Source: Nitrococcus sp.
GTDB taxonomy: Bacteria > Pseudomonadota > Gammaproteobacteria > Nitrococcales > Nitrococcaceae
NCBI GenBank assembly: GCA_030452365.1
Contig: JAKDMK010000029.1
Coordinates: 1-12,878, forward strand
Reading direction: 5' to 3'
Length of the DNA: 12,878 bases
How positions within the stretch are numbered: the first letter of the stretch is position 1; every line of letters begins with the position of its first letter. Position numbers and translations under genes: made by a program. Under the pieces are notes generated by a model. It was not told the DNA's origin. It did not search any database and saw nothing but the letters and a program-made list of their open reading frames with translations. Shown here piece by piece: positions 55 to 12,878 of the stretch.

Positions 55-2028
55 TTACTGGAACAGCTCCTCGATGGTGGCGATCTTATCAAGTGCCCCC
101 GGATTGGCAAGCGCTTCCCGATTGGCGATCTTCTCGCCGCGCAGTAGCTTGACAACGGCAAGCTCGACTTTTTTGCCATTGCGCGTGTAGGGGATCTCGT
201 CGAGCTGGACGATTTTCGCCGGCACATGCCGCGGGCTGGCCCTTGCGCGGATGCGTTGCCGTATCCTGTCTCGGAGCGCGTCGCTGAGCGTGTGGCCCTC
301 GTTTAACACGACCAGCAGGATCACGCGGACGTCGCCACGCCAAGGCTGCCCCACCACGAGGCAGTCGGCGATCTCAGGCATGGTCTCGACCGGTCGATAA
401 ATCTCCGCGGTTCCGATGCGCACTCCGCCGGGGTTGAGTGTCGCATCGGAGCGGCCATGGATCGTCGAGCCGCCGTGCGGGTAGAAGGTGATGTAATCGC
501 CTTGGGCCCAGACACCGGGATACGTTTCGAAGTAAGCCTTGCGATAACGGGTCATGGCGGGGTCGTTCCAAAACCTGACCGGCATGCTTGGCGTCGGCTG
601 AGTGCAGACCAGCTCGCCGGGCTCCCCCACCACCTCAGTGCCGTCTGCGGCGAAGGCCTTGACATCCATGCCCAGCATCTTGCACTGGATCTCGCCTCGG
701 CGAACCGGCAGGATCGGGCAGGCCCCCACGAAGCAGGATACGATATCGGTTCCTCCGGAGATTGATCCGAGCAGCACCTCGGGCTTGATTGCTTGGTAAA
801 CATAATCGAAATCCTCGGGCAGTAGCGGCGAGCCCGTGGAGAAAATTACCCGGAGCCGGTCGAGATCATGCGCCTGACTGGGCTTTAGACCGGCATTACG
901 GCAACTGCCAAGGAACTTGGCGCTGGTGCCGAAGTGTGTGATCCGTTCGCGCTCGACAAGCGCCCAAAGGATATTCAAGTCGGGATAGCTCGGCGAGCCG
1001 TCGAAGAGAATCAGCTCCGCCCCGGTCAGCAGCCCCGAGGCGAGCCAGTTCCACATCATCCAGCCGGTGGTGGTGAAATAGAAGAACACGTCGGATGGTC
1101 CGATGTCAGCGTGCAGAATCAGCTCCTTGCTGTGCTGCAGCAAAGTGCCGCCGGCGCCGTGGACGAGGCATTTCGGTACTCCGGTGGTACCGGAGGAGTA
1201 GAGGATGCAGAGCGGATGATCGAAGGGTAGCCGTTCGAAGTGCAGGCGATGGCCTTGACCGGCGGCGAGCGCGTCCTCCCAGCGGATGAGCTTTGGCTCT
1301 TGCGGGATGGCTACATCGGGCAAATCACTGATCATGACCACGGATTCGATCGTGGGCATCTGCCGTTGCAGCTCCCGTAGCTGATCCAGGCGAACAAAGG
1401 GTTTGCCGTTATAGCGATAACCGTTGCCGGCGATCAGGAACTTCGGTTCGATCTGCCCAAAGCGATCGAGAATACCGTTGACGCCAAAATCCGGCGAGGC
1501 TGATGACCAGATCGCGCCGATGCTGGCCGTAGCGAGCATCGCGATCAGCGCCTCGGGGGTATTGCCAACGATGCCAGCCACCCGGTCGCCCGGGCCCAGG
1601 CCCTGCGCTAGCAGAAAACCCTGCAACTTGCCGACTTCGCCGCACAGCGCCCCATAGCTCAGTTGTCGGCGTGGGCGGGACTCGGATACGGCCGTGACGG
1701 CGGGTTTGGCAGCATCGCCGTGCAGAGCCTCGCGCAGCAGATTCTCGGCGAAATTAAGCCGCGCGCCGGGAAACCACTCAGCCTCGGGCATGTGCCGAGC
1801 GCCGAGCACCCGTGAGTGGCGCCGGCTGGCGATGACGCCGGTGTAATCCCAGATGCTCTCCCAGAAGGTCTCGATCTGGCTCACCGACCAGTGATGCAGC
1901 GCCTGATAATCTCTAAACCGCCCATGGCCCTGCGCCTCCAGCCAATGCTGATACTGCGCCATGTTGCTTTGCTGCAGATCGCGCTCGGTGGGCTGTCGGA
2001 GAATCGGGGAATCCGCGCTCATATCCAT
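55..2028 (-). CDS. Acetoacetyl-CoA synthetase (acetoacetate--CoA ligase)
   Basis: This is a 657-residue cytosolic ligase of the ANL (acyl-adenylate-forming) superfamily. It activates acetoacetate with ATP and CoA to acetoacetyl-CoA, AMP and PPi, feeding ketone bodies or degraded polyhydroxybutyrate back into central carbon metabolism. The adenylation motif YSSGTTGVPK is at residues 277-286 and TTTGWMMWNW at 319-328. A GDYITFYPHGG/HGRSDATLNPGGVRIGT stretch marks the ATP-binding hinge. The C-terminal IPYTRNGKKVE (from residue 612) carries the catalytic lysine. The length is normal for this family and longer than most acetyl-CoA synthetase-like enzymes' core. The start used is the ATG at 2028; a second in-frame ATG at 2022 with GAGC upstream is an equally possible start. 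The gene upstream (DUF1499) ends 129 bp away on the same strand. No promoter was recognised. Confidence 0.95.
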   Translation of the reverse strand: MDMSADSPILRQPTERDLQQSNMAQYQHWLEAQGHGRFRDYQALHHWSVSQIETFWESIWDYTGVIASRRHSRVLGARHMPEAEWFPGARLNFAENLLREALHGDAAKPAVTAVSESRPRRQLSYGALCGEVGKLQGFLLAQGLGPGDRVAGIVGNTPEALIAMLATASIGAIWSSASPDFGVNGILDRFGQIEPKFLIAGNGYRYNGKPFVRLDQLRELQRQMPTIESVVMISDLPDVAIPQEPKLIRWEDALAAGQGHRLHFERLPFDHPLCILYSSGTTGVPKCLVHGAGGTLLQHSKELILHADIGPSDVFFYFTTTGWMMWNWLASGLLTGAELILFDGSPSYPDLNILWALVERERITHFGTSAKFLGSCRNAGLKPSQAHDLDRLRVIFSTGSPLLPEDFDYVYQAIKPEVLLGSISGGTDIVSCFVGACPILPVRRGEIQCKMLGMDVKAFAADGTEVVGEPGELVCTQPTPSMPVRFWNDPAMTRYRKAYFETYPGVWAQGDYITFYPHGGSTIHGRSDATLNPGGVRIGTAEIYRPVETMPEIADCLVVGQPWRGDVRVILLVVLNEGHTLSDALRDRIRQRIRARASPRHVPAKIVQLDEIPYTRNGKKVELAVVKLLRGEKIANREALANPGALDKIATIEELFQ

Positions 2029-2157
2029 CGCTCGATCACGCAGTCAGGTAGACCTGATGGCGAGTGCACGGGGCTGATCTGCGGCTTACAACAGTATAAC
2101 AGGTGAGGCATCGGCTTGATTGCCCGCCACCGCATGCCAACATTAACAATGCACGGG

Positions 2158-2634
2158 TTAGTGAAGCCGCTGTTCGATCTGCTGGCGTAAGCGCACGATG
2201 CGCGCGGTGTTCGCGCCGAAATCCGCCTTCCCCACCCGCGATGCGGAGCGCAGATGCAACGCGCTGCCACCATCCTCGGCCGTCTTCACCCAGACTTCGA
2301 CATCGTCTTTGAAATGCCAGAGCCGTGTGACCGCCACCGCATGCAGGTAGTGACGCTTGGGATCGATGGATTGAATTTTCCAGCCATTGGCGCGCGCCGC
2401 CGCGACCGCGGCCTCGAGCACCGCTTGCGCCGGGCGGCGGTAGACGTATACCCGGCGTTCTGGATAGGCCGACATGGGCTCGGTTTGGGCGACATGGCGG
2501 GTGAGGTAAGTGCCGAGCCGGGCAAGTAATCCTGGGCTCGAGGTCAGCGGTGGGCGGTTGTAGGCAATGACGGCAAGCGGTGTGATTAGCGCAATTACAA
2601 TGAGCGCCAGCAGGAGCCGAATCAGTTGATGCAT
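2158..2634 (-). CDS. DUF1499 family protein, membrane anchored
   Basis: A 158-residue protein with one hydrophobic segment at residues 4-25 (LIRLLLALIVIALITPLAVI), so it is probably an inner-membrane anchor or uncleaved signal with the rest outside the cytoplasm. The remainder fits DUF1499: an RRPAQAVLEAAVAAA helix, then TRLWHFKDDVEVWV, and a C-terminal RSASRVGKADFGANTARI signature. No biochemical function is established for the family. An in-frame ATG further upstream (2775) would add 47 low-complexity residues that overlap the SDR gene. The ATG at 2634 was preferred because it opens directly on the hydrophobic segment and has GGCGGA just upstream. It starts 19 bp after the SDR stop, so the two are probably co-transcribed. 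Confidence 0.85.
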   Translation of the reverse strand: MHQLIRLLLALIVIALITPLAVIAYNRPPLTSSPGLLARLGTYLTRHVAQTEPMSAYPERRVYVYRRPAQAVLEAAVAAARANGWKIQSIDPKRHYLHAVAVTRLWHFKDDVEVWVKTAEDGGSALHLRSASRVGKADFGANTARIVRLRQQIEQRLH

Positions 2635-2653
2635 AATCCGCCAACCGCTTTTG

Positions 2654-3385
2654 TTACCACTCGATCGGATGGCCGTGCTTGAAGAACACGCCGCTTGGTC
2701 CGGTATCAGACAATGTTGCGGCCTCGACCACCCATTCCGCCGCCTCCGCCGGGCTATAGGTAGCCTGTGCACCACCCATGCGGGTGCGTGCCCAGCCCGG
2801 ATCGACCGAGTTGATCTTGATGTTCTCCGATTCGAGCTCCGCGGCGACCACGCAAGTCATCACGTTGAGCATTGCTTTGGACATCCGGTAGGCCGGGAAG
2901 CCGTGCTCCATACGAGCGAGCTGACCATAACCCGAGGAAATGTTGACGATGCGCCCGTAGCCATGGCGACGCATTAACGGCACGAGCATCTGGATTAGGC
3001 GCAGTGGTCCAAATGCATTGGTCTGCAGATTCTCACGCAGCGATTCCAGGGGCATATCGAGTACGCCGGGTGCACTGCGAGCACCCTGCGCGAGATCCTG
3101 TTCGGGGAAGATCCCGGCATTGTTGATCAACACATCGAGTCGACCGAAAGCGTTGTGCAGAAATTCGGCAAGACGCTGCATACTCTCCATGCGGGTGACA
3201 TCGAGGGGATGGTAGCCGACGTCCAGCGCCTCGCCCTGGAGCTTATCGGCCGCGGCTTTGCCCTGTACCGCATCGCGGCTGGTGAGGACGGCCTTGTAGC
3301 CGCGCCGCGCCAACTGGCGCGCGGTTTCCAGGCCAAGTCCGCGATTGGCGCCGGTGATGACGGCAATGCGGCGATTTTCAGTCAT
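2654..3385 (-). CDS. Short-chain dehydrogenase/reductase (carbonyl-reductase-like)
   Basis: A 243-residue classical SDR oxidoreductase, soluble and nucleotide-dependent. It shows the full family signature: TGANRGLG (11-18) for the Rossmann glycine-rich loop, NNAG (88-91), Asn123 in QTNAFG, Ser150/151 in VNISSGYG, and YRMSK with catalytic Tyr166 and Lys170. The DPGWARTRMGG segment resembles the carbonyl reductase/menthone-reductase-like branch, which usually prefers NADP(H). The substrate cannot be read from sequence. The frame runs 23 codons further upstream, but the ATG at 3385 places the Rossmann beta strand (RIAVITGA) in its normal position. It lies 93 bp downstream of gpmA on the same strand and is followed after 19 bp by the DUF1499 gene. 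Confidence 0.93.
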   Translation of the reverse strand: MTENRRIAVITGANRGLGLETARQLARRGYKAVLTSRDAVQGKAAADKLQGEALDVGYHPLDVTRMESMQRLAEFLHNAFGRLDVLINNAGIFPEQDLAQGARSAPGVLDMPLESLRENLQTNAFGPLRLIQMLVPLMRRHGYGRIVNISSGYGQLARMEHGFPAYRMSKAMLNVMTCVVAAELESENIKINSVDPGWARTRMGGAQATYSPAEAAEWVVEAATLSDTGPSGVFFKHGHPIEW

Positions 3386-3478
3386 ATTTATGGCACCAGA
3401 GCAAATGAAATTGACAGTAGTCGGCCCCTCCGGCGGGGTCAAGCCGCCCGTCATACGGTGAGGCGATGCCCCGGCCCA

Positions 3479-4177
3479 TCAGGTGCCGTCCCGCAGGTAG
3501 TAGGTTTGGAGCACCGTCAGATCATCCTCCAGCTCGTAGACGAGTGGCTCGCCCGTGGGGATCTCCAGGCCAGAAATCTCCGCGTCGCTGATTGCGTTGA
3601 GGTGCTTGATCAAGGCACGCAGGCTGTTGCCATGGGCGGAGATAAGCAAGGTCGTACTGTCCTTGAGGCGCGGTATGATGCTGTCGTTCCAACAAGTGAT
3701 CACCCTTTCCTGAGTGTCTTGCAACGACTCTGTCGAAGGCAGCCACTCAGGGCGCAGGTCGGCGTAGCGCGGGTCAAACCGGGGATGGCGCGGATCGTCC
3801 TCGGCCATGCCCGCAGGCCGCGTCGCATAGCTGCGGCGCCAGATATGCACCTGCTCGCTACCGTACTCGCGGGCGGTTTCAGCCTTGTCTAAGCCGGTGA
3901 GCGCACCATAATGGCGCTCATTGAGCCGCCAGTCCTTGGTAATCGGCAGCCACATCTGATCCATGACGTCGAGCGCGATCCAGCAAGTGCGGATCGCCCG
4001 CTTAAGCACAGAGGTGTACACCCAGTCAAAACGAAATTCGTGCCGGGCAAGTAACCGCCCGGCCTCATAGGCCTCCTCTCGCCCTTGATCGCTCAAATCG
4101 ACGTCTTGCCAGCCCGTGAACCGATTTTCTAGGTTCCAGCTGCTCTGGCCGTGCCTGAGCAAGACGAGCTTCTTCAT
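3479..4177 (-). CDS. gpmA: 2,3-bisphosphoglycerate-dependent phosphoglycerate mutase
   Basis: This 232-residue glycolytic enzyme interconverts 3-phosphoglycerate and 2-phosphoglycerate through a phosphohistidine intermediate. RHGQSSWN begins at residue 8, with the phosphorylated His9. [10 protein letters not shown] follows, then [10 protein letters not shown] with the proton-donor Glu87, and [13 protein letters not shown] with the second catalytic His182. The length is near the family norm (about 230-250), with a slightly short C-terminus. The frame is open for 62 codons upstream, but that extension overlaps the peptidase gene and has no family similarity. The ATG at 4177 has GGGAG about 10 bases upstream and gives the canonical [11 protein letters not shown] start. 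The 88-bp gap to the peptidase stop should hold its promoter, but no clear -35/-10 pair was seen. Confidence 0.97.
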
Positions 4178-4265
4178 CGGTAAGCGATCTCCCGCGCCGC
4201 GTAAGGCCATCAACGTGAGTGCATGATACCAACTGTGACAGGCAAAGGCGCTGTATCCTTGGCAC

Positions 4266-5096
4266 TTAACGTGGGAGATTCCGTCCCGGTATTTGCGTGA
4301 GCGTGCTGAGCCCGCTCTCCGTATCGGGCTCAGCAGGATATGGACATGGCTGGTCATCCGCACAACCCCAGTCCTCGTGCGCCAGGGGTGCTTTGTTCAG
4401 TTCATCCTGGCGTAGCCGCCAGTCCGGCATGAATCGGTCCATGAGTTCGCGAAACCAATCCGTGTGATGTCGTTCGAGTAGATGTACCAATTCATGCACG
4501 AGGACGTATTCCAGGCAGGCGTGCGGCTTACGGATCAGCTCCAGGTTCAGCCAGATGCGCCGTGCCCCGATGTTGCAGCTTCCCCAGCGGGTTTTCATGC
4601 GCTTGATGCGGCACTCCGCGACGCCCTTGCCGATGATAGGCTCCCAGGTCGCCAGAAGGTCCGGCACCAGGCCGCGCAGCTCCCGCCGGTACCAGCGCTC
4701 CAGCACCCGCCGGCGGGCGGCGGTATCGGCGCCCGGCGGCACCCGTAGCGCAATCGTGCGATTGCCGGCCAAATGCACGCCGGCACGCCCCGGTGCTTCG
4801 ACCACTTCGAGCCGATAGCGCTCGCCACGGTAATAGTGGCTCTCGCCGGTGACCAACTCGCGCGCCGACTCGCGCGCCTGGGCCAGGAACCGCCGTTGAT
4901 GGCGGCGAATCCAAGCCAGCCGGGAGACGATGGCCAGACGTATGGTCTCGTCATCCATTCGCGCCGGGGCCGCCACGCGCACCCGGCCATCCGGCGGGTA
5001 GACGCCGATATGCAAGTTCTTGATGGCCTTGCGGCGAACCTCCACCGGAATCCCGTTGACCTGTATATGCAGGCGCTCAGTTGGGGTCGATATCAC
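4266..5096 (-). CDS. YgjP/SprT-like zinc metallopeptidase (DUF45, M48-like)
   Basis: A 276-residue predicted zinc hydrolase. HELVH at residues 201-205 supplies the two zinc histidines and the catalytic Glu202. His210 or His211 in ERHHTDWF is the likely third ligand. MKTRWGSC (167-174) is the hallmark of the YgjP/DUF45 family. The N-terminus ([31 protein letters not shown]) matches the family's beta-rich lead-in. Homologues are often found beside hsdR in type I restriction loci, where their role is unknown (recalled knowledge, not checked). Here no hsdR is present, and it is the last gene of the defence-like operon. The start is a GTG at 5096 that overlaps the preceding small gene by 20 bp, with GAGG about 15 bases upstream. 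A later start is possible. The last ~35 residues after DDQPC look unstructured. Confidence 0.92.
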
Positions 5097-5310
5097 GCCC
5101 GCTATCTTTTACCTCTGGCACGTTGCCACCGCCGGCAGAGGCGTCGTCGTTGGGCGGAATATTCAACATTTCCGGCTCGATGCGCTGTACTCGGCCATCC
5201 CGCCAGATCACCGCGTACTGGCCCAGCCGCCTCTTGCGTTCCAGCGCTTCATGGACCGCTTTACGCAGGCTCTCCAGCATGCGTTGGTCGTCTTCAGTGA
5301 GTTGCATCAT
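5077..5310 (-). CDS. Small uncharacterised protein of the 'RRLGQYA' type, intact copy
   Basis: A 77-residue protein of unknown function. The N-terminal half is a charged helix (EDDQRMLESLRKAVHEALERKRRLGQ). It runs into a short predicted strand-turn unit, QYAVIWRDGRVQRIEPEML (31-49), and a poorly conserved acidic, glycine-rich tail. No known domain or catalytic motif is visible. Its start codon overlaps the kinase stop as ATGA (5310-5307), so its translation is probably coupled to the kinase. Its own end overlaps the peptidase gene. A near-copy lies at 6165-6401, immediately after the DUF262 gene. Pairing with two different upstream genes suggests an accessory or binding subunit. An antitoxin role for the kinase is possible but is only inference. 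Confidence 0.8.
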   Translation of the reverse strand: MMQLTEDDQRMLESLRKAVHEALERKRRLGQYAVIWRDGRVQRIEPEMLNIPPNDDASAGGGNVPEVKDSGRDIDPN

Positions 5311-5897
5311 AGCCTTGCCTCACTTTGTAGATCGGCATAAACCGCCACGTCCAGTATCGTGCGGTTCTCGCCTTGTTGCACTAGAACTGGCAAAGGTACA
5401 TCCCCATTATTGAGAAAACACCGAGACCTATCGACCTGCGACGCAAAGTGACAGAAAAAATTCCGTAAACTGCGTGCGAAGCGTCGCTCAATAGCTGCCT
5501 GCGGGATATCGTGCCCGCCGTGGGCTACACGTTCAGCGACACGCAAACGTGACATCTCGACGCTGGGCAATGCCAGATACACCAGCTCCACACGCCAACC
5601 GTCGCACTGGAGGCGCGAAACAAGCTGAAAATAAGCTCGCCCGGATAGCGTCGTCTCGAAACCGAAATCTTGCCTTTCCCGAACGCACTGCTTTATTCGT
5701 GACAGATAAATTCGGGAGGCAGCTACTTGCACCTGTTCCGGGGACAACGGTGACAAGCCTGCCGCGATCGAATCGACGTTAATGAAACGACGGCAGCCCA
5801 CCACCTCGGGCAGATAGGACAACGCGAAGGTCGTCTTGCCAGCGCCGTTCGGGCCAGCGATAATCCAACAGGTCGGATGTGAACGGCGACCCGTCAC
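5307..5897 (-). CDS. Zeta-toxin-like P-loop kinase/ATPase
   Basis: A 196-residue P-loop protein. GPNGAGKTT at 15-23 is the Walker A motif. FINVDSIAAGLSP (38-50) and FGFETTLSGRAY (79-89) are typical of the zeta-toxin/chromosomal 'AAA' kinase group, in which the Asp and Glu contribute to catalysis. RVAERVAHGGHDIP and RRFARSLRNF provide the basic lid. True zeta toxins phosphorylate UDP-N-acetylglucosamine; for this short chromosomal group the substrate is not established. The reading frame is open 75 codons further upstream, but that part is an out-of-frame reading of the HsdS remnant. The GTG at 5897 was chosen because it overlaps that remnant's TGA as GTGA and gives the expected family length. 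The next gene starts in an ATGA overlap. No recognisable epsilon-type antitoxin is adjacent. Confidence 0.85.
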   Translation of the reverse strand: MTGRRSHPTCWIIAGPNGAGKTTFALSYLPEVVGCRRFINVDSIAAGLSPLSPEQVQVAASRIYLSRIKQCVRERQDFGFETTLSGRAYFQLVSRLQCDGWRVELVYLALPSVEMSRLRVAERVAHGGHDIPQAAIERRFARSLRNFFCHFASQVDRSRCFLNNGDVPLPVLVQQGENRTILDVAVYADLQSEARL

Positions 5898-6168
5898 CCC
5901 GAAGCCTCTGCGGGTTTCGGCTTCAGTCGTGCCATCTGTACGCGGCCGGTGAGGAGTTGCTGCATCACGCCCTGCTTGACCTGGCGGGCCTTGTCGCGGC
6001 GGCGTTCCAGGGCTTCGATTTCGTTGTCCATGTCGGACAGAAGTTGGCGATGGCGGTCTGTTCGTCTTCACCCTGTCGGGCGGATAAGCGCAGCGCATCC
6101 GCCACAGTCTCTGAAAACCCAACGGCGTAGCTTCGTTCCCGGATAACCTTCGTGCGATCCGGTTTCAC
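5894..6168 (-). pseudogene. Frameshifted remnant ending in a type I R-M HsdS C-terminus
   Basis: Two adjacent frames join into a recognisable HsdS (specificity subunit) tail. From the GTG at 6168 one frame reads to QGEDEQTAIANF, ending about 6040. A different frame then continues LLSDMDNEIEALERRRDKAR and VKQGVMQQLLTGRVQM, stopping at TGA 5896-5894. HsdS proteins typically end with QTAIAxxLSDMDxEIxALE, a coiled-coil helix and QGMMQELLTGRIRL, so a single lost base near 6040-6043 explains the break. Only the distal conserved helix region survives; both target-recognition domains are missing. The first ~33 codons are not recognised and may come from another gene. The GTG overlaps the end of the upstream small-gene copy as GTGA, and the TGA overlaps the kinase start. 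A 45-residue ORF from the ATG at 6031 could still be translated and keep the kinase coupled. Confidence 0.72.
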
Positions 6169-6401
6169 TCACGACGCCTGTCGATATCACGCCCAGCATC
6201 TGTCGCCTCGGGCACGCTTCCATCGCTGGTAGAGGCATGACTGTGCGGAAATTTCTGCATTTCCGGCTCGATGCGTTGCACTCAGCCGTCTCGCCAGACT
6301 AGCGCATATTGCCCCAACCGGCGCTTGCGCTCTAGCGCGCCCACCACCGCCTTTCGCAACGCTGCGAGTGCCTGGGATTCGTAGTCGCGCTCATTCATCA
6401 T
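6165..6401 (-). pseudogene. Second copy of the small 'RRLGQYA' gene, interrupted by a TGA
   Basis: From the ATG at 6401 (overlapping the DUF262 stop as ATGA) the frame reads MMNERDYESQALAALRKAVV, then GALERKRRLGQYALVWRDG, and meets TGA at 6284-6282. Reading through, it continues VQRIEPEMQ and ends ...AGRDIDRRRE, with its own TGA at 6167-6165. The intact copy at 5077-5310 has RVQRIEPEM here with the codon CGA, so one C-to-T change explains the stop. The rest of the frame is undamaged, which suggests a recent mutation. A GTG follows the stop at once, so restart is conceivable. The break probably reduces coupled translation of the genes downstream. A 14-base identical stretch (TCGATATCACGCCC on the plus strand) at 5087-5100 and 6181-6194 marks the shared end of the two copies. 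Confidence 0.85.
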
Positions 6402-8356
6402 GCCTCCGCTACCGTCAGCACCTCCCGCCTGACGTAATCGCGGAACTTGTCAACTGAGGTAAATACGCGATAGCCCGCCTCACTCGCGATGGCCAACAAG
6501 TCTTGGGCTTCGTTTAACAGCATGGCCACGGGCTGGGTCAACCCTTCCTGTAGGCCATGCATCCAGGCCAAATCGAAGATGGCTCGCTGTTCCCCCGTGT
6601 CAGGGTCGGAAAAATCGAAGCCCATTACACCGGCCGAAAGACCCTGTTGGACTACCCAGTTATTGAGAGTGGTGAGCTCTGCTTGCTCTTCGTCGCTGGT
6701 TATGCCGCCGCCGACTACCGCCGGTGCAGCCATCGCTCCTGCCGGCCCTTCGAGCCACTGAGTATCGCCATGCAACAGCTCTTCCATGCGGCGATTGACT
6801 TCTTCAGCCAGCAACGCCTTGCGTGCTTCAAGGAAATCCCGGAAGCAACCAATTTTCCAAAGTTCTGGATCCATTGGAATCCATTGCGAGGCCAGAGCGC
6901 CGCGATGATCCTGTTCCACTTTCGCGAAATACTCCTCCGGCAGCCGATTGCTAATAATGAGATTGGTGTCCTTGGTCAGGAAACAGAAATTGGCCAATGC
7001 ATTAACCTCGGAGCGCTGGAAGTTGAGCTTGGTCGCCTCGTAGAGCTGCGATTTGGGGAAGATATGATGAACCTCGAGACGGCTCATCCTACCGAGCAGA
7101 TTGGCCCGCAACGGCAGGCCGGTACCCCAGTCGCGGGCCGCCCCCATGCGGGTGATCAGATAAAGAACGGGATAGAAACGTGCCCCCAGGCTCCAACCAG
7201 TGAAGTGGCCCGGCTGCACGCGCAGTGCACCATGCCATAGGCGAAGCTGGCTGATCAACTCGTTAGCACCGGCATTTTCGGTTTCCAGCGCTTCGAGATC
7301 TTTGTCAATGTAGGTTTCCGTCGATCCAGAGTATCGGCCCCACATACCAGTCTGGGCGAACCAGAACAGCAGCTTGTCGCGTTCGGTCTCAGTGAGTTTA
7401 CCTCCCATTTTATCCAGATAGCGCGCCATCACGGGGATGGCAAAGCGACCAAAAATTACCCGATCATGATCAAGCCCTAGCCGTCCGGCAATCATATTCA
7501 GCAGATTGTCGATGTGCCTGTTTGCATGAGCCAGCGCATCGCGGACTTCCCCTCCGGACTTGTTGTGCAGGTGCTGGAATTTGGCTTCTCCGGTGAGCAC
7601 GGTATTGACGGAGCGCAGCAGCCAATCAAGATTGAAGTTGTAGCCGGCTTGCTCCCAGTCCTTCAGCTTGGTTTTCATTTCGTTCCTGGCTTCCGGCCAG
7701 TCGGCGCAGATCTTGGCCAAAGCCAAATCGCCCTTGGAGAGCTTGGTGCCACCGCTGTTGACCCGATTGAAGATGTCGACGACCACGTCCAGTGTCATGT
7801 GTTCGCCTGTGACTTCCTCGATGTGCAGAGCAACATCCAGAATACCGAGTATGCGCGCAAGCCGGCCCGCGTAACCAGCGGCCCTGATACCGATTTCAGG
7901 CTGCTCGGCCAGTGTCTCGACCATGCTCTCCAGGCCAGCCGGGCCCTTCTTCATCAGCGTGCTGACGTCGATCCACAGTGGATCGTCCTGCATCCTGATG
8001 GGCTGATAGAAGGAGAACTCCTCTTTATCCAGGTGGAACATCAGTCCGGTAAAGGCCCGCTCGTCGCCATCGAAGAACTTCGGTGCCTTGCCCCGAGCCA
8101 CACCGTAGAGCGAAGTTATCCGCTGCTGCCCATCAAGCAGCAGTTTGACGACGCCTGACGCAACTTGGCCATCGCCTCGGGAAGCAGCTTGGTCGGCCTG
8201 CGTCGCCCAAACCAGCAGACCGCCCACAGGATGGCGCCGATAGAGCGAAGCGAACAGCCCGCGCACCTGATCGCGATTCCAGACATAGCCACGCTGGAAT
8301 TCCGGCAATGCCATGTGGCCGCTGTCAATGTGATCAAGAATGGTTGAAATTCTCAT
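6398..8356 (-). CDS. DUF262/DUF1524 (GmrSD-like) HNH nuclease, defence type
   Basis: A 652-residue protein with two known modules. Residues 1-250 are DUF262 (ParB-like nucleotide-binding fold): LPEFQRGYVW (17-26), PVGGLLVW, and the signature DGQQR at 75-79, with FNRVNSGGTKLSKGDLALAK at 196-215. Residues 415-480 are the DUF1524-type HNH nuclease: RLEVHHIFPKSQL (426-438), then NALANFCFLTKDTN (452-465) and NRLPEEYF. DUF262-HNH proteins such as GmrSD, BrxU and SspE act as nucleotide-dependent restriction of modified or phage DNA; the exact target here is unknown. Residues 575-645 form an extra C-terminal unit (GFDFSDPDTGEQRAIFDLAW ... GYRVFTSVDKFRDYVRREVL). The ATG at 8356 was chosen over one 14 codons upstream because MRISTILDHIDSG is the usual beginning. 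It is the first gene of the operon. Confidence 0.92.
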   Translation of the reverse strand: MRISTILDHIDSGHMALPEFQRGYVWNRDQVRGLFASLYRRHPVGGLLVWATQADQAASRGDGQVASGVVKLLLDGQQRITSLYGVARGKAPKFFDGDERAFTGLMFHLDKEEFSFYQPIRMQDDPLWIDVSTLMKKGPAGLESMVETLAEQPEIGIRAAGYAGRLARILGILDVALHIEEVTGEHMTLDVVVDIFNRVNSGGTKLSKGDLALAKICADWPEARNEMKTKLKDWEQAGYNFNLDWLLRSVNTVLTGEAKFQHLHNKSGGEVRDALAHANRHIDNLLNMIAGRLGLDHDRVIFGRFAIPVMARYLDKMGGKLTETERDKLLFWFAQTGMWGRYSGSTETYIDKDLEALETENAGANELISQLRLWHGALRVQPGHFTGWSLGARFYPVLYLITRMGAARDWGTGLPLRANLLGRMSRLEVHHIFPKSQLYEATKLNFQRSEVNALANFCFLTKDTNLIISNRLPEEYFAKVEQDHRGALASQWIPMDPELWKIGCFRDFLEARKALLAEEVNRRMEELLHGDTQWLEGPAGAMAAPAVVGGGITSDEEQAELTTLNNWVVQQGLSAGVMGFDFSDPDTGEQRAIFDLAWMHGLQEGLTQPVAMLLNEAQDLLAIASEAGYRVFTSVDKFRDYVRREVLTVAEA

Positions 8357-8608
8357 GCAATTGACCTGTAAAAACCCTTGTACTCTTTCTCCCTGCAATC
8401 TCGAAGAAGTGTTGATGATTACTCAAGGCCTGTCCGTGCGTCATTCTGCATAACGCGCAAGCTTGCCCAATCCCGTACTGCAGCCAAAGCATTGGGGGTC
8501 GGGTGCAGAGCTTAGGGCAAACGTTGGGGTTCGCGAGCTCACTCCACCCAACGGTAGCCGAGCCGCTTTCGGCGTGCAGAGTTTCAGCGTTTGCAGCGCG
8601 CTGAGATC
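8357..8608. other. Intergenic stretch between the cyclase and DUF262 genes
   Basis: This 252-bp gap holds no convincing gene. It must carry the promoter of the minus-strand defence-like operon, but no clear -35/-10 pair stands out. A small inverted repeat (GCCGA 8554 region with TCGGC) and a seven-pair stem GCAGCGC (8593-8599)/GCGCTGC (8612-8618), which overlaps the cyclase stop codon, are visible. The latter could be a terminator for the cyclase gene, but no T run follows it. Confidence 0.4.
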
Positions 8609-9271
8609 TTAGCGCTGCGCGAGCACCTGATTGGATAATGGCCGCAGCAGTGCCCGAGCCGGCGCACCATCGGCGCCGGCGAGCCGCAGCGGTAGACAGA
8701 TGAGCTCATAGTAGCCGGGGTCGACCGCGCCCAGATTCAGGCCTTCGATAATCCATATCCCCGCGCCTAAGAGCGCACGGTGCACCTCGGCGCCATCGCC
8801 CTGATAGGGGCCTACCGACAAGTAATCGATGCCGAGCAGCCGTATCTGCCGACTGGCGAGGTAGCGCGCGGCCTCTAGGCTCAATCCGGTGAACTCGGGA
8901 TCGAACGCTTGCTCGGACCAGATGCGATCCGAATTGCGGGTCTTTAGCAGTAGCCGCTCGCCGGTTTGAATGTCGGCTGACTCGAGTGCCTGCCGCGAAA
9001 CCGGGCCTGGCGTAGCTACGCTTATCACGCGCGCGCGTCCAATGGTTGCCGTAAAGGGCAGCGCATCCATGCTCGCGGCGCCCGGCAGATAATGGATCGG
9101 CGCGTCCATGTGCGTACCCGTGTGTGCGCTCATGCAAAGCTCGGTCAGGTTGGCCTCGTCGCCGCGCTCGATGGCGTGTGCTCGGCGCACGCGCACGGGC
9201 GGATCGCCTGGCCAGTGCACCATTGCGTCACGGATGGGTACCGAGATGTCGATCCAGCCGCTAGACTCCAT
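8609..9271 (-). CDS. Cyclase-family metal hydrolase (kynurenine formamidase-like)
   Basis: A 220-residue member of the cyclase/KynB family of metal-dependent amidohydrolase-like enzymes. HTGTHMDAPIH at residues 50-60 is the family's metal-binding signature. IDISVPIRDAMVHWPGDPPV (7-26) is the usual N-terminus, and GIDYLSVGPY (147-156) with VHRALLGAGIWIIEGLNL (163-180) gives the C-terminal active-site half. KynB itself hydrolyses N-formylkynurenine. No other tryptophan-degradation gene is nearby, so the substrate is unproven. The frame is open 71 codons upstream, but that stretch runs into the transposable element's end. The ATG at 9271, with AAAGGA upstream, gives the correct family start. Its upstream region is cut short by the RAYT element, whose left end is only 50 bp away. 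Confidence 0.9.
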   Translation of the reverse strand: MESSGWIDISVPIRDAMVHWPGDPPVRVRRAHAIERGDEANLTELCMSAHTGTHMDAPIHYLPGAASMDALPFTATIGRARVISVATPGPVSRQALESADIQTGERLLLKTRNSDRIWSEQAFDPEFTGLSLEAARYLASRQIRLLGIDYLSVGPYQGDGAEVHRALLGAGIWIIEGLNLGAVDPGYYELICLPLRLAGADGAPARALLRPLSNQVLAQR

Positions 9272-9344: not shown

Positions 9345-9398
9345 ATATTTGCCTTTCGCGAGATAAGCTGCTGTTTTGCAAGTGGGCCGAGGGATGTG

Positions 9399-10121
9399 AT
9401 GGCTCGATTGCCAAGATTTGTGCTGCCCGGGCAGCCGCAACACGTCATCCAGCGCGGCAACAACCGCGAGGCGGTCTTTGGCACGGTGGCTGATTACCGC
9501 TTCTATCTGGAAAAGCTCCAGGCGGCGGCCGAAAAGCATCGCTGCGAAATCCACGCCTATGTGCTGATGACCAACCACGTCCATCTCCTGCTGACCCCGC
9601 ATAAAGAAGACGGGATCGGTAAGCTCATGCAAACGCTGGGGCGCTACTACGTCCAATACTACAACCATTGTTATCAGCGCACCGGCACCTTGTGGGAGGG
9701 CCGCTACAAAGCGACGCTGATCGACACCGAGTGCTACCTGCTGACCTGTATGCGCTATATCGAGCTCAATCCGGTACGCGCCGGCATGGTAGGGCACCCT
9801 TCGGAATATCCCTGGTCCAGTTACCGGCATACGGCCCTGGGGCAAGCCGATGAGCTGCTGAGCGCGCATGATGAATACCGCAGGCTGGGCAAGACGGACG
9901 CAGAACGCCAAGCGGCCTACCGGCAACTGTTCAGAGGTCGCATTGCGCAGAGCACTCTGGAGCAAATACGCCACGCCACCAACAAAGCCTGGGTGTTAGG
10001 CGATGAGCGATTCAAACGCCGGATCGAGAGACAATTACAGCGGCCGGTTGCGCCAAAGGCCCGCGGGGGTGACCGCAAGTCAGAGAACTATCGGCATCAC
10101 GCCAAAATCAATCGAGTCTGA
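9399..10121 (+). CDS. REP-associated tyrosine transposase (TnpA_REP, HUH family)
   Basis: A 240-residue HUH/Y1 transposase of the RAYT group, which nicks and joins single-stranded DNA at REP sequences. MTNHVHLLL (57-65) carries the HUH metal site at His60 and His62. GRYYVQYYNHCYQRTGTLWEG (81-101) is the conserved central motif. MRYIELNPVRAGM (118-130) contains the probable nucleophile Tyr120. YPWSSYRH (137-144) and a basic C-terminal tail (APKARGGDRKSENYRHHAK) follow. The ATG at 9399 was chosen over a GTG one codon earlier; GAGGG lies about 8 bases upstream. No frameshift or missing residue was seen, so it may be active. The stop lies inside the right REP-like end. A long antisense frame over it is not a gene. 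Confidence 0.93.
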   Translation: MARLPRFVLPGQPQHVIQRGNNREAVFGTVADYRFYLEKLQAAAEKHRCEIHAYVLMTNHVHLLLTPHKEDGIGKLMQTLGRYYVQYYNHCYQRTGTLWEGRYKATLIDTECYLLTCMRYIELNPVRAGMVGHPSEYPWSSYRHTALGQADELLSAHDEYRRLGKTDAERQAAYRQLFRGRIAQSTLEQIRHATNKAWVLGDERFKRRIERQLQRPVAPKARGGDRKSENYRHHAKINRV

Positions 10122-10405: not shown

Positions 10406-10678
10406 ATGGCTTCGGCAGTAAAGACGGTTGGCCGGAGCGGGCAGATCTCGCTAGGCAAGGAGTACGCAGGCCGCCAGGTGATTGTCGAGGAGACGGCGCC
10501 GGGCGTGTGGGTGATCAAGGCAGGAACGTTCGTGCCTGACAGTGAGCGCTGGTTGCACGAGTCGCCCGTACGCGAGAGCCTGGATCGTGCGATTGCCGCA
10601 GCGAGCACCAGCGCCCCCGCCGATCGGCTCGATGAGATCAAGGAACGAGTCGACAATGGCAACGGCGATAAGGCTTGA
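10406..10678 (+). CDS. AbrB/MazE-like antitoxin
   Basis: A 90-residue protein whose N-terminal half (VKTVGRSGQISLGKEYAGRQVIVEETAPGVWVI, residues 5-37) looks like a swapped-hairpin AbrB/MazE DNA-binding domain. The C-terminal half (SERWLHESPVRESLDRAIAA ... DRLDEIKERV) is helical and charged, the usual toxin-binding part of an antitoxin. The start ATG at 10406 has a strong AAGGAGGAAG ribosome site; the frame is open 40 codons upstream, but no ribosome site or homology supports that. The last 23 bases overlap the start of the next gene, a layout typical of toxin-antitoxin pairs, where antitoxin and toxin usually repress their own promoter. The palindromes in the upstream gap could be its operator. 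Confidence 0.83.
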   Translation: MASAVKTVGRSGQISLGKEYAGRQVIVEETAPGVWVIKAGTFVPDSERWLHESPVRESLDRAIAAASTSAPADRLDEIKERVDNGNGDKA

Positions 10679-10958
10679 CCTCAACAACCCCGAATTTCAG
10701 GAGCTCTTCTTCTCTCTCGAGAAGCCGCAACAGCTCGCGGTGCTCAAGACCTTCCAGAAGCTGCGGCAAATGACTTGGGAACAGGTCTACACCGACTCGG
10801 GCTCAAACTGGGAGGCGATCCTCTCCAAGACGGGGCCGGGCGGTGGCCGCCTCTACTCCTTTCGCATCGGCAAGGGCTTTCGAGGCGTAGCCTATCTTGA
10901 TGACGCATGGCTACGCGTGCTCGGCGTCTACCCCGACCACGACAGCGCCTACCGATAG
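10656..10958 (+). CDS. Putative RelE-fold toxin partner
   Basis: A 100-residue protein starting with ATG at 10656 inside the end of the antitoxin gene. The N-terminus (IRLDLNNPEFQELFFSLEKP) and helix AVLKTFQKLRQMTWEQVY lead to RLYSFRIGKGFRGVAYLDDAWLRVLGVYPDHDSAYR. That last stretch resembles the RelE/HigB beta-sheet core, which binds the ribosome and cleaves mRNA in characterised family members. Arg/Lys residues at RIGKGFR and the closing PDHDSAY are the likely functional parts, but catalytic residues are not assigned with confidence. Length and overlap with the antitoxin fit a type II toxin. This call rests on remembered similarity and gene order, and it could instead be an uncharacterised partner of the AbrB-like protein. 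Confidence 0.72.
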   Translation: MATAIRLDLNNPEFQELFFSLEKPQQLAVLKTFQKLRQMTWEQVYTDSGSNWEAILSKTGPGGGRLYSFRIGKGFRGVAYLDDAWLRVLGVYPDHDSAYR

Positions 10959-11121: not shown

Positions 11122-11370
11122 ATGGTCCGCACCCAGATTTACCTCACCGAATCCGAGCAGCAGGCGCTGCGGGCGCTCTCGCGCCGCACTGGCCGCACTC
11201 AAAGCGAGCTGATCCGTGAGGCCGTGGACCGGCTCATTGCGCAGTCAGAAAGAACGGATCGTCTCGCTCTGCTCAGGCAGGCGCGCGGCATGTGGCAGGG
11301 CCGGGAAGACCTGCCGGATTTTGCCGCACTCCGCCGCGAGCTCGACCACTCGGCATCGGGACCGGAATAA
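11122..11370 (+). CDS. vapB: RHH-type VapB-like antitoxin
   Basis: An 82-residue protein. VRTQIYLTESEQQALRALSR (2-21) is the beta strand plus first helix of a ribbon-helix-helix DNA-binding domain, and RTGRTQSELIREAVDRLI (22-39) is the turn and second helix. The C-terminal tail (LLRQARGMWQGREDLPDFAALRREL) is the kind of disordered helix that blocks the PIN active site. Its TAA overlaps the toxin start by one base (TAATG), so the two are translationally coupled. It is expected to neutralise the toxin and repress the operon through the repeats upstream. No strong ribosome site precedes the ATG. The family assignment is by motif and neighbour only. Confidence 0.87.
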   Translation: MVRTQIYLTESEQQALRALSRRTGRTQSELIREAVDRLIAQSERTDRLALLRQARGMWQGREDLPDFAALRRELDHSASGPE

Positions 11371-11753
11371 TGCCGAAGCGGCTGTTGTTCGATACGGATG
11401 TACTCATTGATTATCTGCGCGGAGTCCAGGAAGCCATCGCCTATCTTGAGAGCCGGAAGGAAGTGTTGCTCGTGTCGGCCGTCACGGCGGCGGAGCTATA
11501 CGCCGGCGTGCGCGAGGGCCAGGAACGGACGGCGCTTGGCGCGTTCATAGGGGCGTTCGAGGTGCTGCCACTGGATCAGGCGATTGCAGAGAAGGGTGGT
11601 CTCCTGCGTCGGGACTATGGCAAGAGCCATGGTACAGGATTGGCCGATGCGCTGATCGCGGCCACTGCCGAGCTCCAGCGGGCAACACTGGTGACGCGGA
11701 ACCACAAGCACTTCCCGATGTTGAAGCACGTGCAGGTGCCATACCACTGCTAA
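11370..11753 (+). CDS. vapC: VapC-type PIN-domain ribonuclease toxin
   Basis: A 127-residue PIN-domain protein, the toxin of a VapBC pair; such toxins cleave tRNA or rRNA with magnesium. The acidic active site is complete: Asp8 or Asp10 in LLFDTDVLIDYL, Glu42 in SAVTAAELYAG, Asp93 in GTGLADALIAATA, and the usual TRNHKHF (109-115) near the end. The length is typical. The ATG at 11370 overlaps the antitoxin stop as TAATG; a longer frame begins at 11292 but reads the antitoxin gene out of frame. No damage was seen, so the module looks functional. hsdM begins 109 bp downstream on the same strand. Confidence 0.93.
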   Translation: MPKRLLFDTDVLIDYLRGVQEAIAYLESRKEVLLVSAVTAAELYAGVREGQERTALGAFIGAFEVLPLDQAIAEKGGLLRRDYGKSHGTGLADALIAATAELQRATLVTRNHKHFPMLKHVQVPYHC

Positions 11754-11862: not shown

Positions 11863-12878
11863 ATGATCATCGGCGAGCTCAAATCCAAGGTCGACCGCAT
11901 CTGGGACACGATGTGGTCGGGCGGCATTTCCAATCCGCTTTCCGTCATCGAGCAGCTCACCTATCTGCTCTTTATCAAGCGGCTCGACGAGCTGCACACG
12001 CTGCGCGAGCGCAAGGCGGCGCGCACCGGGAAGCCCATCGAGGAGCCGATCTTCGCGGCCGATGAGGAGCACCTGCGCTGGTCGCGCTTCAAGGAGACCG
12101 CGCCGGAGCAGATGTTCGCGACGGTGCGCGACGAGGTGTTCCCCTTCATCAAGGGCCTCGGGCGCAACGGCGGCGACGCGGCGGAGGGCGATTCCACCTA
12201 CAGCCACCATATGAAGGACGCGCTCTTCATGATGCCCACGCCGCGCGTGCTGGCCAACGTGGTGGACCAGCTCGACGCCATCGACATGGCCGACAGTGAC
12301 ACCAAGGGCGATCTCTACGAATACATGCTCGGCAAGATCGCCAGCGCCGGGCAGAACGGTCAGTTCCGCACGCCGCGCCACATCATCAAGCTGATGGTGG
12401 GGATGACCGCCCCCACACCCAAGGACATGATCTGCGACCCGGCCTGCGGCACGGCGGGCTTTCTGATCGCCGTCTCCGAACACCTGCGCGCGCACCACTC
12501 CGATGCCATCTACAGGAACGAGGCCTCGCGCCGCCGCTTCAACGAGGGCACCTTTCACGGCTTCGACTTCGATTCCACCATGCTGCGCATCGGCAGCATG
12601 AACATGCTGTTGCACGGCGTGGAGAACCCCGACATCCGCTATCGGGATTCCCTGGCCGAGGGCGCCTCGAACAATGGCGGCGACGACGCGGAGAAATACT
12701 CCCTTATCCTCGCCAATCCGCCCTTCGCGGGCAGTCTGGACTACGAGACCACCGCCAGGGACCTGCAGCAGATCGTCAAGACCAAGAAGACCGAGCTGCT
12801 GTTCCTCGCGCTGTTCCTGCGCCTGCTCCAGACCGGCGGACGGGCGGCGGTCATCGTGCCGGACGGCGTGCTGTTCGG
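11863..12878 (+). CDS. hsdM: Type I restriction-modification DNA methyltransferase subunit (N-terminal part)
   Basis: The gene is open to the window edge; 338 codons are present of a usual ~480-530. HsdM is the N6-adenine methyltransferase subunit that binds S-adenosylmethionine and works with HsdS, and with HsdR for cleavage. The N-terminal helical HsdM domain (KVDRIWDTMWSGGISNPLSVIEQLTYLLFIKRLDEL, 9-44) is followed by QFRTPRHIIKLMV (167-179). Motif I for AdoMet, DPACGTAGF, is at 192-200 and the catalytic NPPF motif at 285-288. The start ATG at 11863 gives the standard MIIGELKSKVDRIWD beginning, although the ribosome site is weak. The 109-bp gap after vapC shows no other gene. hsdS and hsdR, if present, lie to the right of the window. 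Confidence 0.97.
   Translation, partial: MIIGELKSKVDRIWDTMWSGGISNPLSVIEQLTYLLFIKRLDELHTLRERKAARTGKPIEEPIFAADEEHLRWSRFKETAPEQMFATVRDEVFPFIKGLGRNGGDAAEGDSTYSHHMKDALFMMPTPRVLANVVDQLDAIDMADSDTKGDLYEYMLGKIASAGQNGQFRTPRHIIKLMVGMTAPTPKDMICDPACGTAGFLIAVSEHLRAHHSDAIYRNEASRRRFNEGTFHGFDFDSTMLRIGSMNMLLHGVENPDIRYRDSLAEGASNNGGDDAEKYSLILANPPFAGSLDYETTARDLQQIVKTKKTELLFLALFLRLLQTGGRAAVIVPDGVLF

What the first reader, a model, noticed from the sequence alone, without database searches (positions are those of the whole stretch)
4266..8356. Six-frame coupled operon mixing a DUF262-HNH nuclease, a zeta-like kinase, an HsdS tail and a YgjP peptidase
All reading frames are on the minus strand with junctions ATGA (6401), GTGA (6168), GTGA (5897), ATGA (5310) and a 20-bp overlap at 5077-5096. 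Such uninterrupted coupling across unlike functions suggests selection as one unit. The DUF262-HNH family is established as restriction/defence, zeta-like kinases are toxin-related, and YgjP-type peptidases are recalled near hsdR. The combination may be a composite defence cassette: a nuclease effector plus a kinase/protease arm. That function is inference.
Basis: partly seen in the sequence, partly recalled or inferred. Interest (0 to 1): 0.72.

Follow-up and report, generated by a model that had tools for sequence, protein, structure and literature searches.

The report
Kinase–antitoxin cargo of restriction operons

The parts
6398..8356 (-). DUF262 (GmrSD_N)-HNH nuclease, 652 aa, intact; LLDGQQR motif and an HNH-like HHIFP...N stretch visible in the sequence
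   Evidence: GmrSD_N 3.6e-25, GmrSD_C only 12.2 bits against a cut-off of 23; PADLOC HEC-05 2.8e-43; relatives at 69%, 67% and 53% in three other genomes of 369, the 67% one between hsdS and hsdR
6168..6401 (-). Broken copy of the small-protein gene (smallA): in-frame TGA at codon 40; paralogue of smallB
   Evidence: 61%, 1 TGA; 77% DNA identity over 162 columns
5896..6168 (-). Relic of the 3' end of hsdS, frameshifted; its stop overlaps the kinase start as in intact hsdS-kinase operons
   Evidence: (69% to the HsdS of L022)
5307..5897 (-). Zeta-like P-loop kinase, 196 aa, intact; GPNGAGKT, D42, FETTLSG (E81), R139 and R142 kept
5077..5310 (-). Small partner protein (smallB), 77 aa, intact; predicted helix 6-28 plus hairpin 33-44, motif ALERKRRLGQYAVIWRDG; putative antitoxin
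   Evidence: 435 homologues at E <= 1e-3; no Pfam; alignment; weak model
4266..5096 (-). YgjP-like zinc metallopeptidase, 276 aa, HELVH motif intact; normally the gene after hsdR in this kind of operon
   Evidence: PF01863 5.2e-60; hsdR-ygjP order in L031, L052, L053, L056, L062, L071, L097 and L209

Best explanation
The block is the remnant of the cargo slot of a Type I RM operon (hsdM-hsdS-[cargo]-hsdR-ygjP) that has lost hsdM, nearly all of hsdS, and hsdR. Surviving cargo: a GmrSD-type nuclease gene, and a two-gene module in which a zeta-like kinase is followed, with a 4-bp overlap, by a small helix-hairpin protein. I propose that the kinase is a toxin that phosphorylates a metabolite or nucleic-acid end, that the small protein binds and silences it, and that translational coupling keeps them matched. 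Placed between the modification/specificity gene and the restriction gene, the module would be co-expressed with the RM system and act as a retention (addiction) element and/or a suicidal second line when the RM system or host translation is disabled, as described for PrrC and DarTG2. Shown here: anatomy, recurrence, the slot, the one-sided loss pattern, the predicted kinase fold, purifying selection. Inferred: toxicity, neutralisation, substrate, defence.
Confidence: 0.62

Rival explanations
1. The kinase and small protein are accessory regulators of the restriction enzyme, not a toxin and antitoxin: the small protein is a subunit or adaptor of the RM complex, and the kinase modifies or gates it.
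For: Small protein overlapping hsdS, with hsdR further on and no kinase, in seven loci; strong conservation of LERKRRLGQYAVIW; recurrence in both Type I and Type III systems.
Against: Many pairs have no RM gene nearby (17 of 36 intact pairs labelled none); in the window and in G003 kinase and partner are under purifying selection without hsdR beside them; the partner stays with nearly every intact kinase of the clade whether or not RM genes are near.
Confidence: 0.2
2. The kinase is a nucleic-acid end-healing kinase (polynucleotide-kinase-like) that repairs restriction or phage-inflicted ends; the small protein is a cofactor.
Confidence: 0.12
3. All six frames act together as one composite defence system.
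For: Continuous short overlaps on one strand; a distant DUF262 gene directly before a kinase-small pair in L083.
Against: Two frames are broken; the sister genome G003 runs from the first codons of DUF262 straight to the kinase start and lacks the rest of DUF262, smallA and the hsdS tail, but keeps the other genes; the three closest DUF262 relatives (L202-L204) have no kinase or small protein within about 1.5 kb.
Confidence: 0.04
4. Neutral debris with no present function.
For: Broken smallA and hsdS tail; missing hsdR.
Against: dN/dS of kinase, smallB and YgjP resembles that of three flanking genes; frames intact.
Confidence: 0.05

Closest known systems
Zeta / PezT toxins (PF06414) with epsilon / PezA
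   Same: P-loop kinase fold (1gvn, 2p5t); K/D/E/R positions invariant within the clade sample
   Different: Shorter kinase; the partner gene lies downstream, encodes a short helix-plus-hairpin protein, and its profile matched no PDB antitoxin by sequence
DarTG2 embedded between hsdS and hsdR (RptR island, PMC12255303; passages and section 25 seen)
   Same: Toxin-antitoxin module in the same hsdS-hsdR slot; the paper also lists an M48 gene among the conserved neighbours; one of my loci (L097) has a macro-domain darG-like gene together with kinase and small protein
   Different: Different toxin and antitoxin; our module also lies between mod and res of Type III systems
PrrC within EcoprrI (Type IC RM; passages in PMC3874165 and PMC12707154)
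   Same: Latent suicidal effector embedded in a Type I RM operon
   Different: PrrC is an anticodon nuclease held by the RM complex itself
GmrSD / BrxU Type IV restriction enzymes; PADLOC HEC-05
   Same: DUF262 N-domain; HEC-05 profile hit
   Different: C-terminal Pfam domain below cut-off; here a cargo of a Type I RM slot
ParD-like (PF11903) plus zeta-like kinase pairs
   Same: Related kinase at 31% identity with a predicted antitoxin gene beside it (L185)
   Different: Antitoxin upstream and of another family; outside the RM-embedded clade

Membership tests
Zeta toxin family (PF06414) toxin-antitoxin systems | Kinase domain of the zeta family | tested here: met
Zeta toxin family (PF06414) toxin-antitoxin systems | Conserved catalytic residues (Walker lysine, acidic residues, arginines) | tested here: met
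   K21, D42, E81, R139, R142 invariant in 34 aligned kinases including the window's; their roles are recalled from zeta, not tested
Zeta toxin family (PF06414) toxin-antitoxin systems | Epsilon/PezA-like antitoxin gene upstream | tested here: not met
   The partner gene is downstream; no PDB antitoxin matched its profile by sequence; so filed as zeta-like, not as an epsilon-zeta system
Zeta toxin family (PF06414) toxin-antitoxin systems | Toxicity neutralised by the partner; UDP-GlcNAc phosphorylation | not testable with these tools
   needs bench work
Type I RM operon | hsdM, hsdS and hsdR intact and together | tested here: not met
   Only a frameshifted hsdS 3' end and ygjP remain in the block; an hsdM start lies about 6 kb from the kinase on the other strand, at the contig edge
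RM-embedded cargo module (hsdS-hsdR slot) | Homologues lie between hsdS and hsdR in intact operons | tested here: met
   kinase+small: L031 and others; DUF262: L209
RM-embedded cargo module (hsdS-hsdR slot) | Contributes to phage defence | not testable with these tools
   no assay; PADLOC 2.0.0 gives the small protein no hit and the window's kinase only weak hits (E 0.0035 or worse)
GmrSD (Type IV restriction) | GmrSD_N and GmrSD_C domains | tested here: inconclusive
   GmrSD_N met (3.6e-25); GmrSD_C 12.2 bits, under the cut-off of 23
YgjP-like metallopeptidase (PF01863) | Domain over cut-off with a zinc-binding HExxH | tested here: met
   203 bits; HELVH in the translation

The most novel reading that the evidence does not exclude
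A clade of zeta-type kinases with a previously undescribed downstream antitoxin family (helix plus beta-hairpin, two homologous subfamilies) forms a guard module that repeatedly enters the gap between modification and restriction genes of both Type I and Type III RM systems, where it senses failure of the RM operon and kills or arrests the cell; in Nitrococcus-like bacteria it has become free-living after its host operon died.
Probability: 0.35. Interest if true: 0.72.

Novelty: new variant of a known kind. Interest (0 to 1): 0.5.

Why it matters
Toxins embedded in Type I RM operons are on record (PrrC, DarTG2). A kinase/partner pair that takes the same position in Type I and Type III systems of several phyla would make the guard-versus-addiction question testable with one module in two RM contexts, and gives a sequence handle (ALERKRRLGQYAVIWRDG) for a family of hundreds of unnamed small proteins without a Pfam model. 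It also shows how strings of overlapping genes of unlike function can arise: as cargo left behind when an RM backbone is lost.

Tried and rejected
Phage link: a family member (P0024) gave no match in 50,697 phage records and three places in two plasmid records (with the window's 77-aa protein found one of these two records); the alignment gave one locus in viral contigs (L200, where the reading frame at the left end looks HsdR-like by eye). So the family is rare in these collections; not followed further.

NCBIfam gave no useful name for the nuclease, kinase, small protein or YgjP. Solved-structure sequence searches with the kinase and the small-protein alignment gave only chance-level hits. 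No fold search was made with the small-protein model because its confidence is too low. Promoter/terminator scan of 4150-8700: 2 promoter-like sites (shuffles 1.6) and 3 terminator-like sites (shuffles 4.0), about what chance gives.

Papers: ten searches: zeta toxin with Type I RM, COG4185 (18), zeta toxin + hsdR, restriction-linked accessory genes, zeta toxin + Type III restriction, embedded toxin-antitoxin and anticodon nuclease, 'between hsdS' + toxin, zeta-like + RM, guilt-by-embedding, zeta/epsilon. I saw listings only, except passages of PMC3874165, PMC12707154, PMC2701414, PMC3874152 and PMC12255303, and section 25 of the last. None of what I saw describes this kinase/small pair in RM operons. 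The Payne et al. 2024 preprint on embedded defences is in the reference list of PMC12255303; preprints are not held and I have not seen it, so it may list this module. PMC12255303 also mentions an 'AAA-like ATPase' plus 'putative RNA-binding protein' pair between hsdS and hsdR in four genomes; I could not check whether that is this pair.

Weak points of my counts: in the tree run four kinases were labelled 'Hma'; PADLOC shows for L047 a DrmD-like helicase + Type III methylase + Type III nuclease and for L102 DrmD-like helicase + Type III methylase + HEC-01A. The counts use the corrected label, extended by me from these two loci to six more (L041, L050, L064, L078, L094, L095) because the hits have similar sizes and order; the tree was not rerun. 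Some tree labels were set by hand: window and L032 as Type I (relic hsdS or ygjP only), L068 as Type I (hsdS 1.4 kb upstream), L033 as none. In the tree, rows at or under 40% identity could not get the Type III label, so L185 (res-like helicase 456 bp upstream) counts as none there, but as RM. The 41% cut was chosen after seeing the table. One of the 65 kinase places (G269:C15, a weak fragment) was not fetched; nine incomplete kinases and two duplicates were left out of the tree. Two of the 80 small-protein loci lay at contig edges and were not judged. The 80 loci are the best 80 of 131.

Full report
WHAT IS IN THE WINDOW. The window is a 12,878-bp contig (C547) of a draft genome of 656 contigs; its closest relatives in the searches are Nitrococcus records. 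On the minus strand from 8356 to 4266 lie: a DUF262 (GmrSD_N)-HNH protein; a broken copy of a small-protein gene (TGA at codon 40); a frameshifted HsdS C-terminal relic; an intact zeta-like kinase; an intact copy of the small-protein gene; and an intact YgjP metallopeptidase.

WHERE THE PARTS COME FROM. A scan of genome contigs with an alignment of the small protein gave 131 loci, of which the best 80 were returned. In L031 the order is hsdM-hsdS-kinase-small-hsdR-ygjP with overlapping ends from hsdS on; L052, L053, L056, L062, L071 and L097 show hsdS, kinase, small, hsdR and ygjP in the same order, partly with extra genes between (Pfam names for L031). The titles of these seven include cyanobacterial (Aliterella, Chlorogloea), Rhodothermales, Acidobacteria and gammaproteobacterial (Halorhodospira) records. 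The window's HsdS relic ends on the kinase start as the intact hsdS genes do, and ygjP is the gene that follows hsdR. hsdR is absent from the block. The DUF262 gene also belongs to this slot: in G065 the order is hsdM-hsdS-DUF262 (66% to the window)-hsdR-ygjP (Pfam). The window's own genome carries on contig C320 hsdS-RhuM/Fic-hsdR-ygjP. So the six frames are cargo and 3' end of a Type I RM operon, with the backbone lost. Two copies of the small gene with an hsdS end between them suggest that two such cargo regions were joined (inference).

THE SISTER GENOME. In G003 (Nitrococcus sp. 48_S62, contig of 13,653 bp) an 82-base match covers the DUF262 start to about codon 24, and the next match begins at the kinase start; the rest of DUF262, smallA and the HsdS relic are missing, while kinase (90%), smallB (83%) and ygjP (89%) remain. 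Between the two genomes dN/dS is 0.14 for the kinase (bootstrap 0.08-0.24), 0.29 for smallB (0.11-0.70) and 0.27 for ygjP (0.17-0.42), against 0.22, 0.14 and 0.14 for three flanking genes. So kinase, partner and YgjP still look selected without the RM backbone. An orphan small protein elsewhere in both genomes has 0.59 with a wide interval (0.22-2.7), so nothing can be said for that one.

RECURRENCE AND CONTROL. A kinase search of 369 genomes of the class found 65 places in 57 genomes; 64 were examined, most with up to 8 kb on each side where the contig allowed. With RM genes defined by phmmer to references named by Pfam or by eye, 16 of 34 kinases with local identity of 41% or more (the window included) have a same-strand RM gene within 1.5 kb, against 1 of 30 below 41% (Fisher p 5e-5). 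The cut was set after seeing the data; a tree of 86 kinases puts every one labelled RM-embedded in one 60-row clade (SH-aLRT 98) and needs 19 changes between embedded and not, of which starred branches force at least 7 (shuffled mean 25.1). Genome-wide, the 57 genomes hold 160 PF02384 and 117 PF01555 matches (my sums), so a random point lies near such a gene in roughly 1% of cases (hand estimate). Among the 80 small-protein loci, 28 are beside Type I, 8 beside Type III and 1 beside GmrSD genes, and 43 beside none by my rule (the Type III assignment of the large loci rests on PADLOC hits for L047 and L102, extended to six others by size and order). In six loci of the kinase sample the pair lies between mod and res (L148, L149, L150, L153, L156, L159); PADLOC confirms the methylase of L148 as Type III.

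ONE-SIDED LOSS. Of 78 judged small-protein loci, 36 have an intact kinase upstream, 22 a kinase remnant and 20 none. Of 26 judged intact kinases at 41% or more, 24 have a partner of one of the two subfamilies; the other two (L165, L182) have a look-alike small gene that my profiles did not score. Of 26 judged kinases below 41%, none has one. Loss of the kinase with the partner kept is thus common, and the reverse is rare (Fisher p 2e-5). This is what a toxin and antitoxin would show. Cautions: the two searches ascertain differently, the kinase gene is three times longer, and the small protein may have a role of its own, since in seven loci it directly follows hsdS with no kinase (L039, L043, L049, L051, L059, L061, L063).

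MECHANISM. Most likely the kinase is a zeta-like toxin held by the small protein, and the module sits in the M/S-R gap so that it is made together with the RM enzymes. Toxin modules in such operons are on record: DarTG2 between hsdS and hsdR in PMC12255303 (passages and section 25) and PrrC in EcoprrI (passages). Whether the role is retention or suicidal back-up cannot be told from sequence. The DUF262 nuclease probably acts alone as a modification-dependent restriction enzyme (from established knowledge of GmrSD; not tested). YgjP's role in RM operons is unknown to me beyond its position.

NOVELTY. The slot and the idea of embedded toxins are known. I found no description of this kinase and partner in RM operons in the searches named in Tried and rejected; the embedded-defence preprint of Payne et al. 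2024 was not available. I rate it a new variant of a known kind.

Noticed in passing
window 11122-11753 (+): A VapBC-like pair: ribbon-helix-helix protein (PF12651, PF01402) followed by a PIN-domain protein (PF01850).
   Followed up: partly
window 10406-10958 (+): Two small overlapping genes that look by eye like another toxin-antitoxin-style pair; no Pfam match for either.
   Followed up: no
window 11863-12876 (+): Start of an hsdM (HsdM_N and N6_Mtase) running off the contig end, on the other strand from the studied block.
   Followed up: no
window 9396-10121 (+): IS200-like (Y1) transposase gene (PF01797).
   Followed up: no
L029 (G000:C320) 655-7119: Same genome: hsdS-RhuM/Fic-hsdR-ygjP, another cargo in the hsdS-hsdR slot.
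   Followed up: partly
L097 9219-15848: Kinase, small protein and a macro-domain darG-like gene together in one Type I operon of Halorhodospira abdelmalekii, with a further 861-aa gene upstream of the kinase.
   Followed up: partly
L047 3059-13572; L102 5731-14501: DrmD-like helicase linked to a Type III methylase, with the kinase-small pair embedded and, in L047, a Type III nuclease after it.
   Followed up: partly
L018 9442-9645 and L019 898-1101: Orphan small protein without kinase in both Nitrococcus-like genomes.
   Followed up: partly
L048, L079, L082, L087, L093, L108: Kinase remnants that keep only the C-terminal third or so next to an open small protein; chance, or the part that the small protein binds?
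   Followed up: no
L135 683-898 and 1982-2197: Two copies of a subfamily-B-like small protein flank one kinase, a parallel to the duplicated small gene of the window.
   Followed up: no
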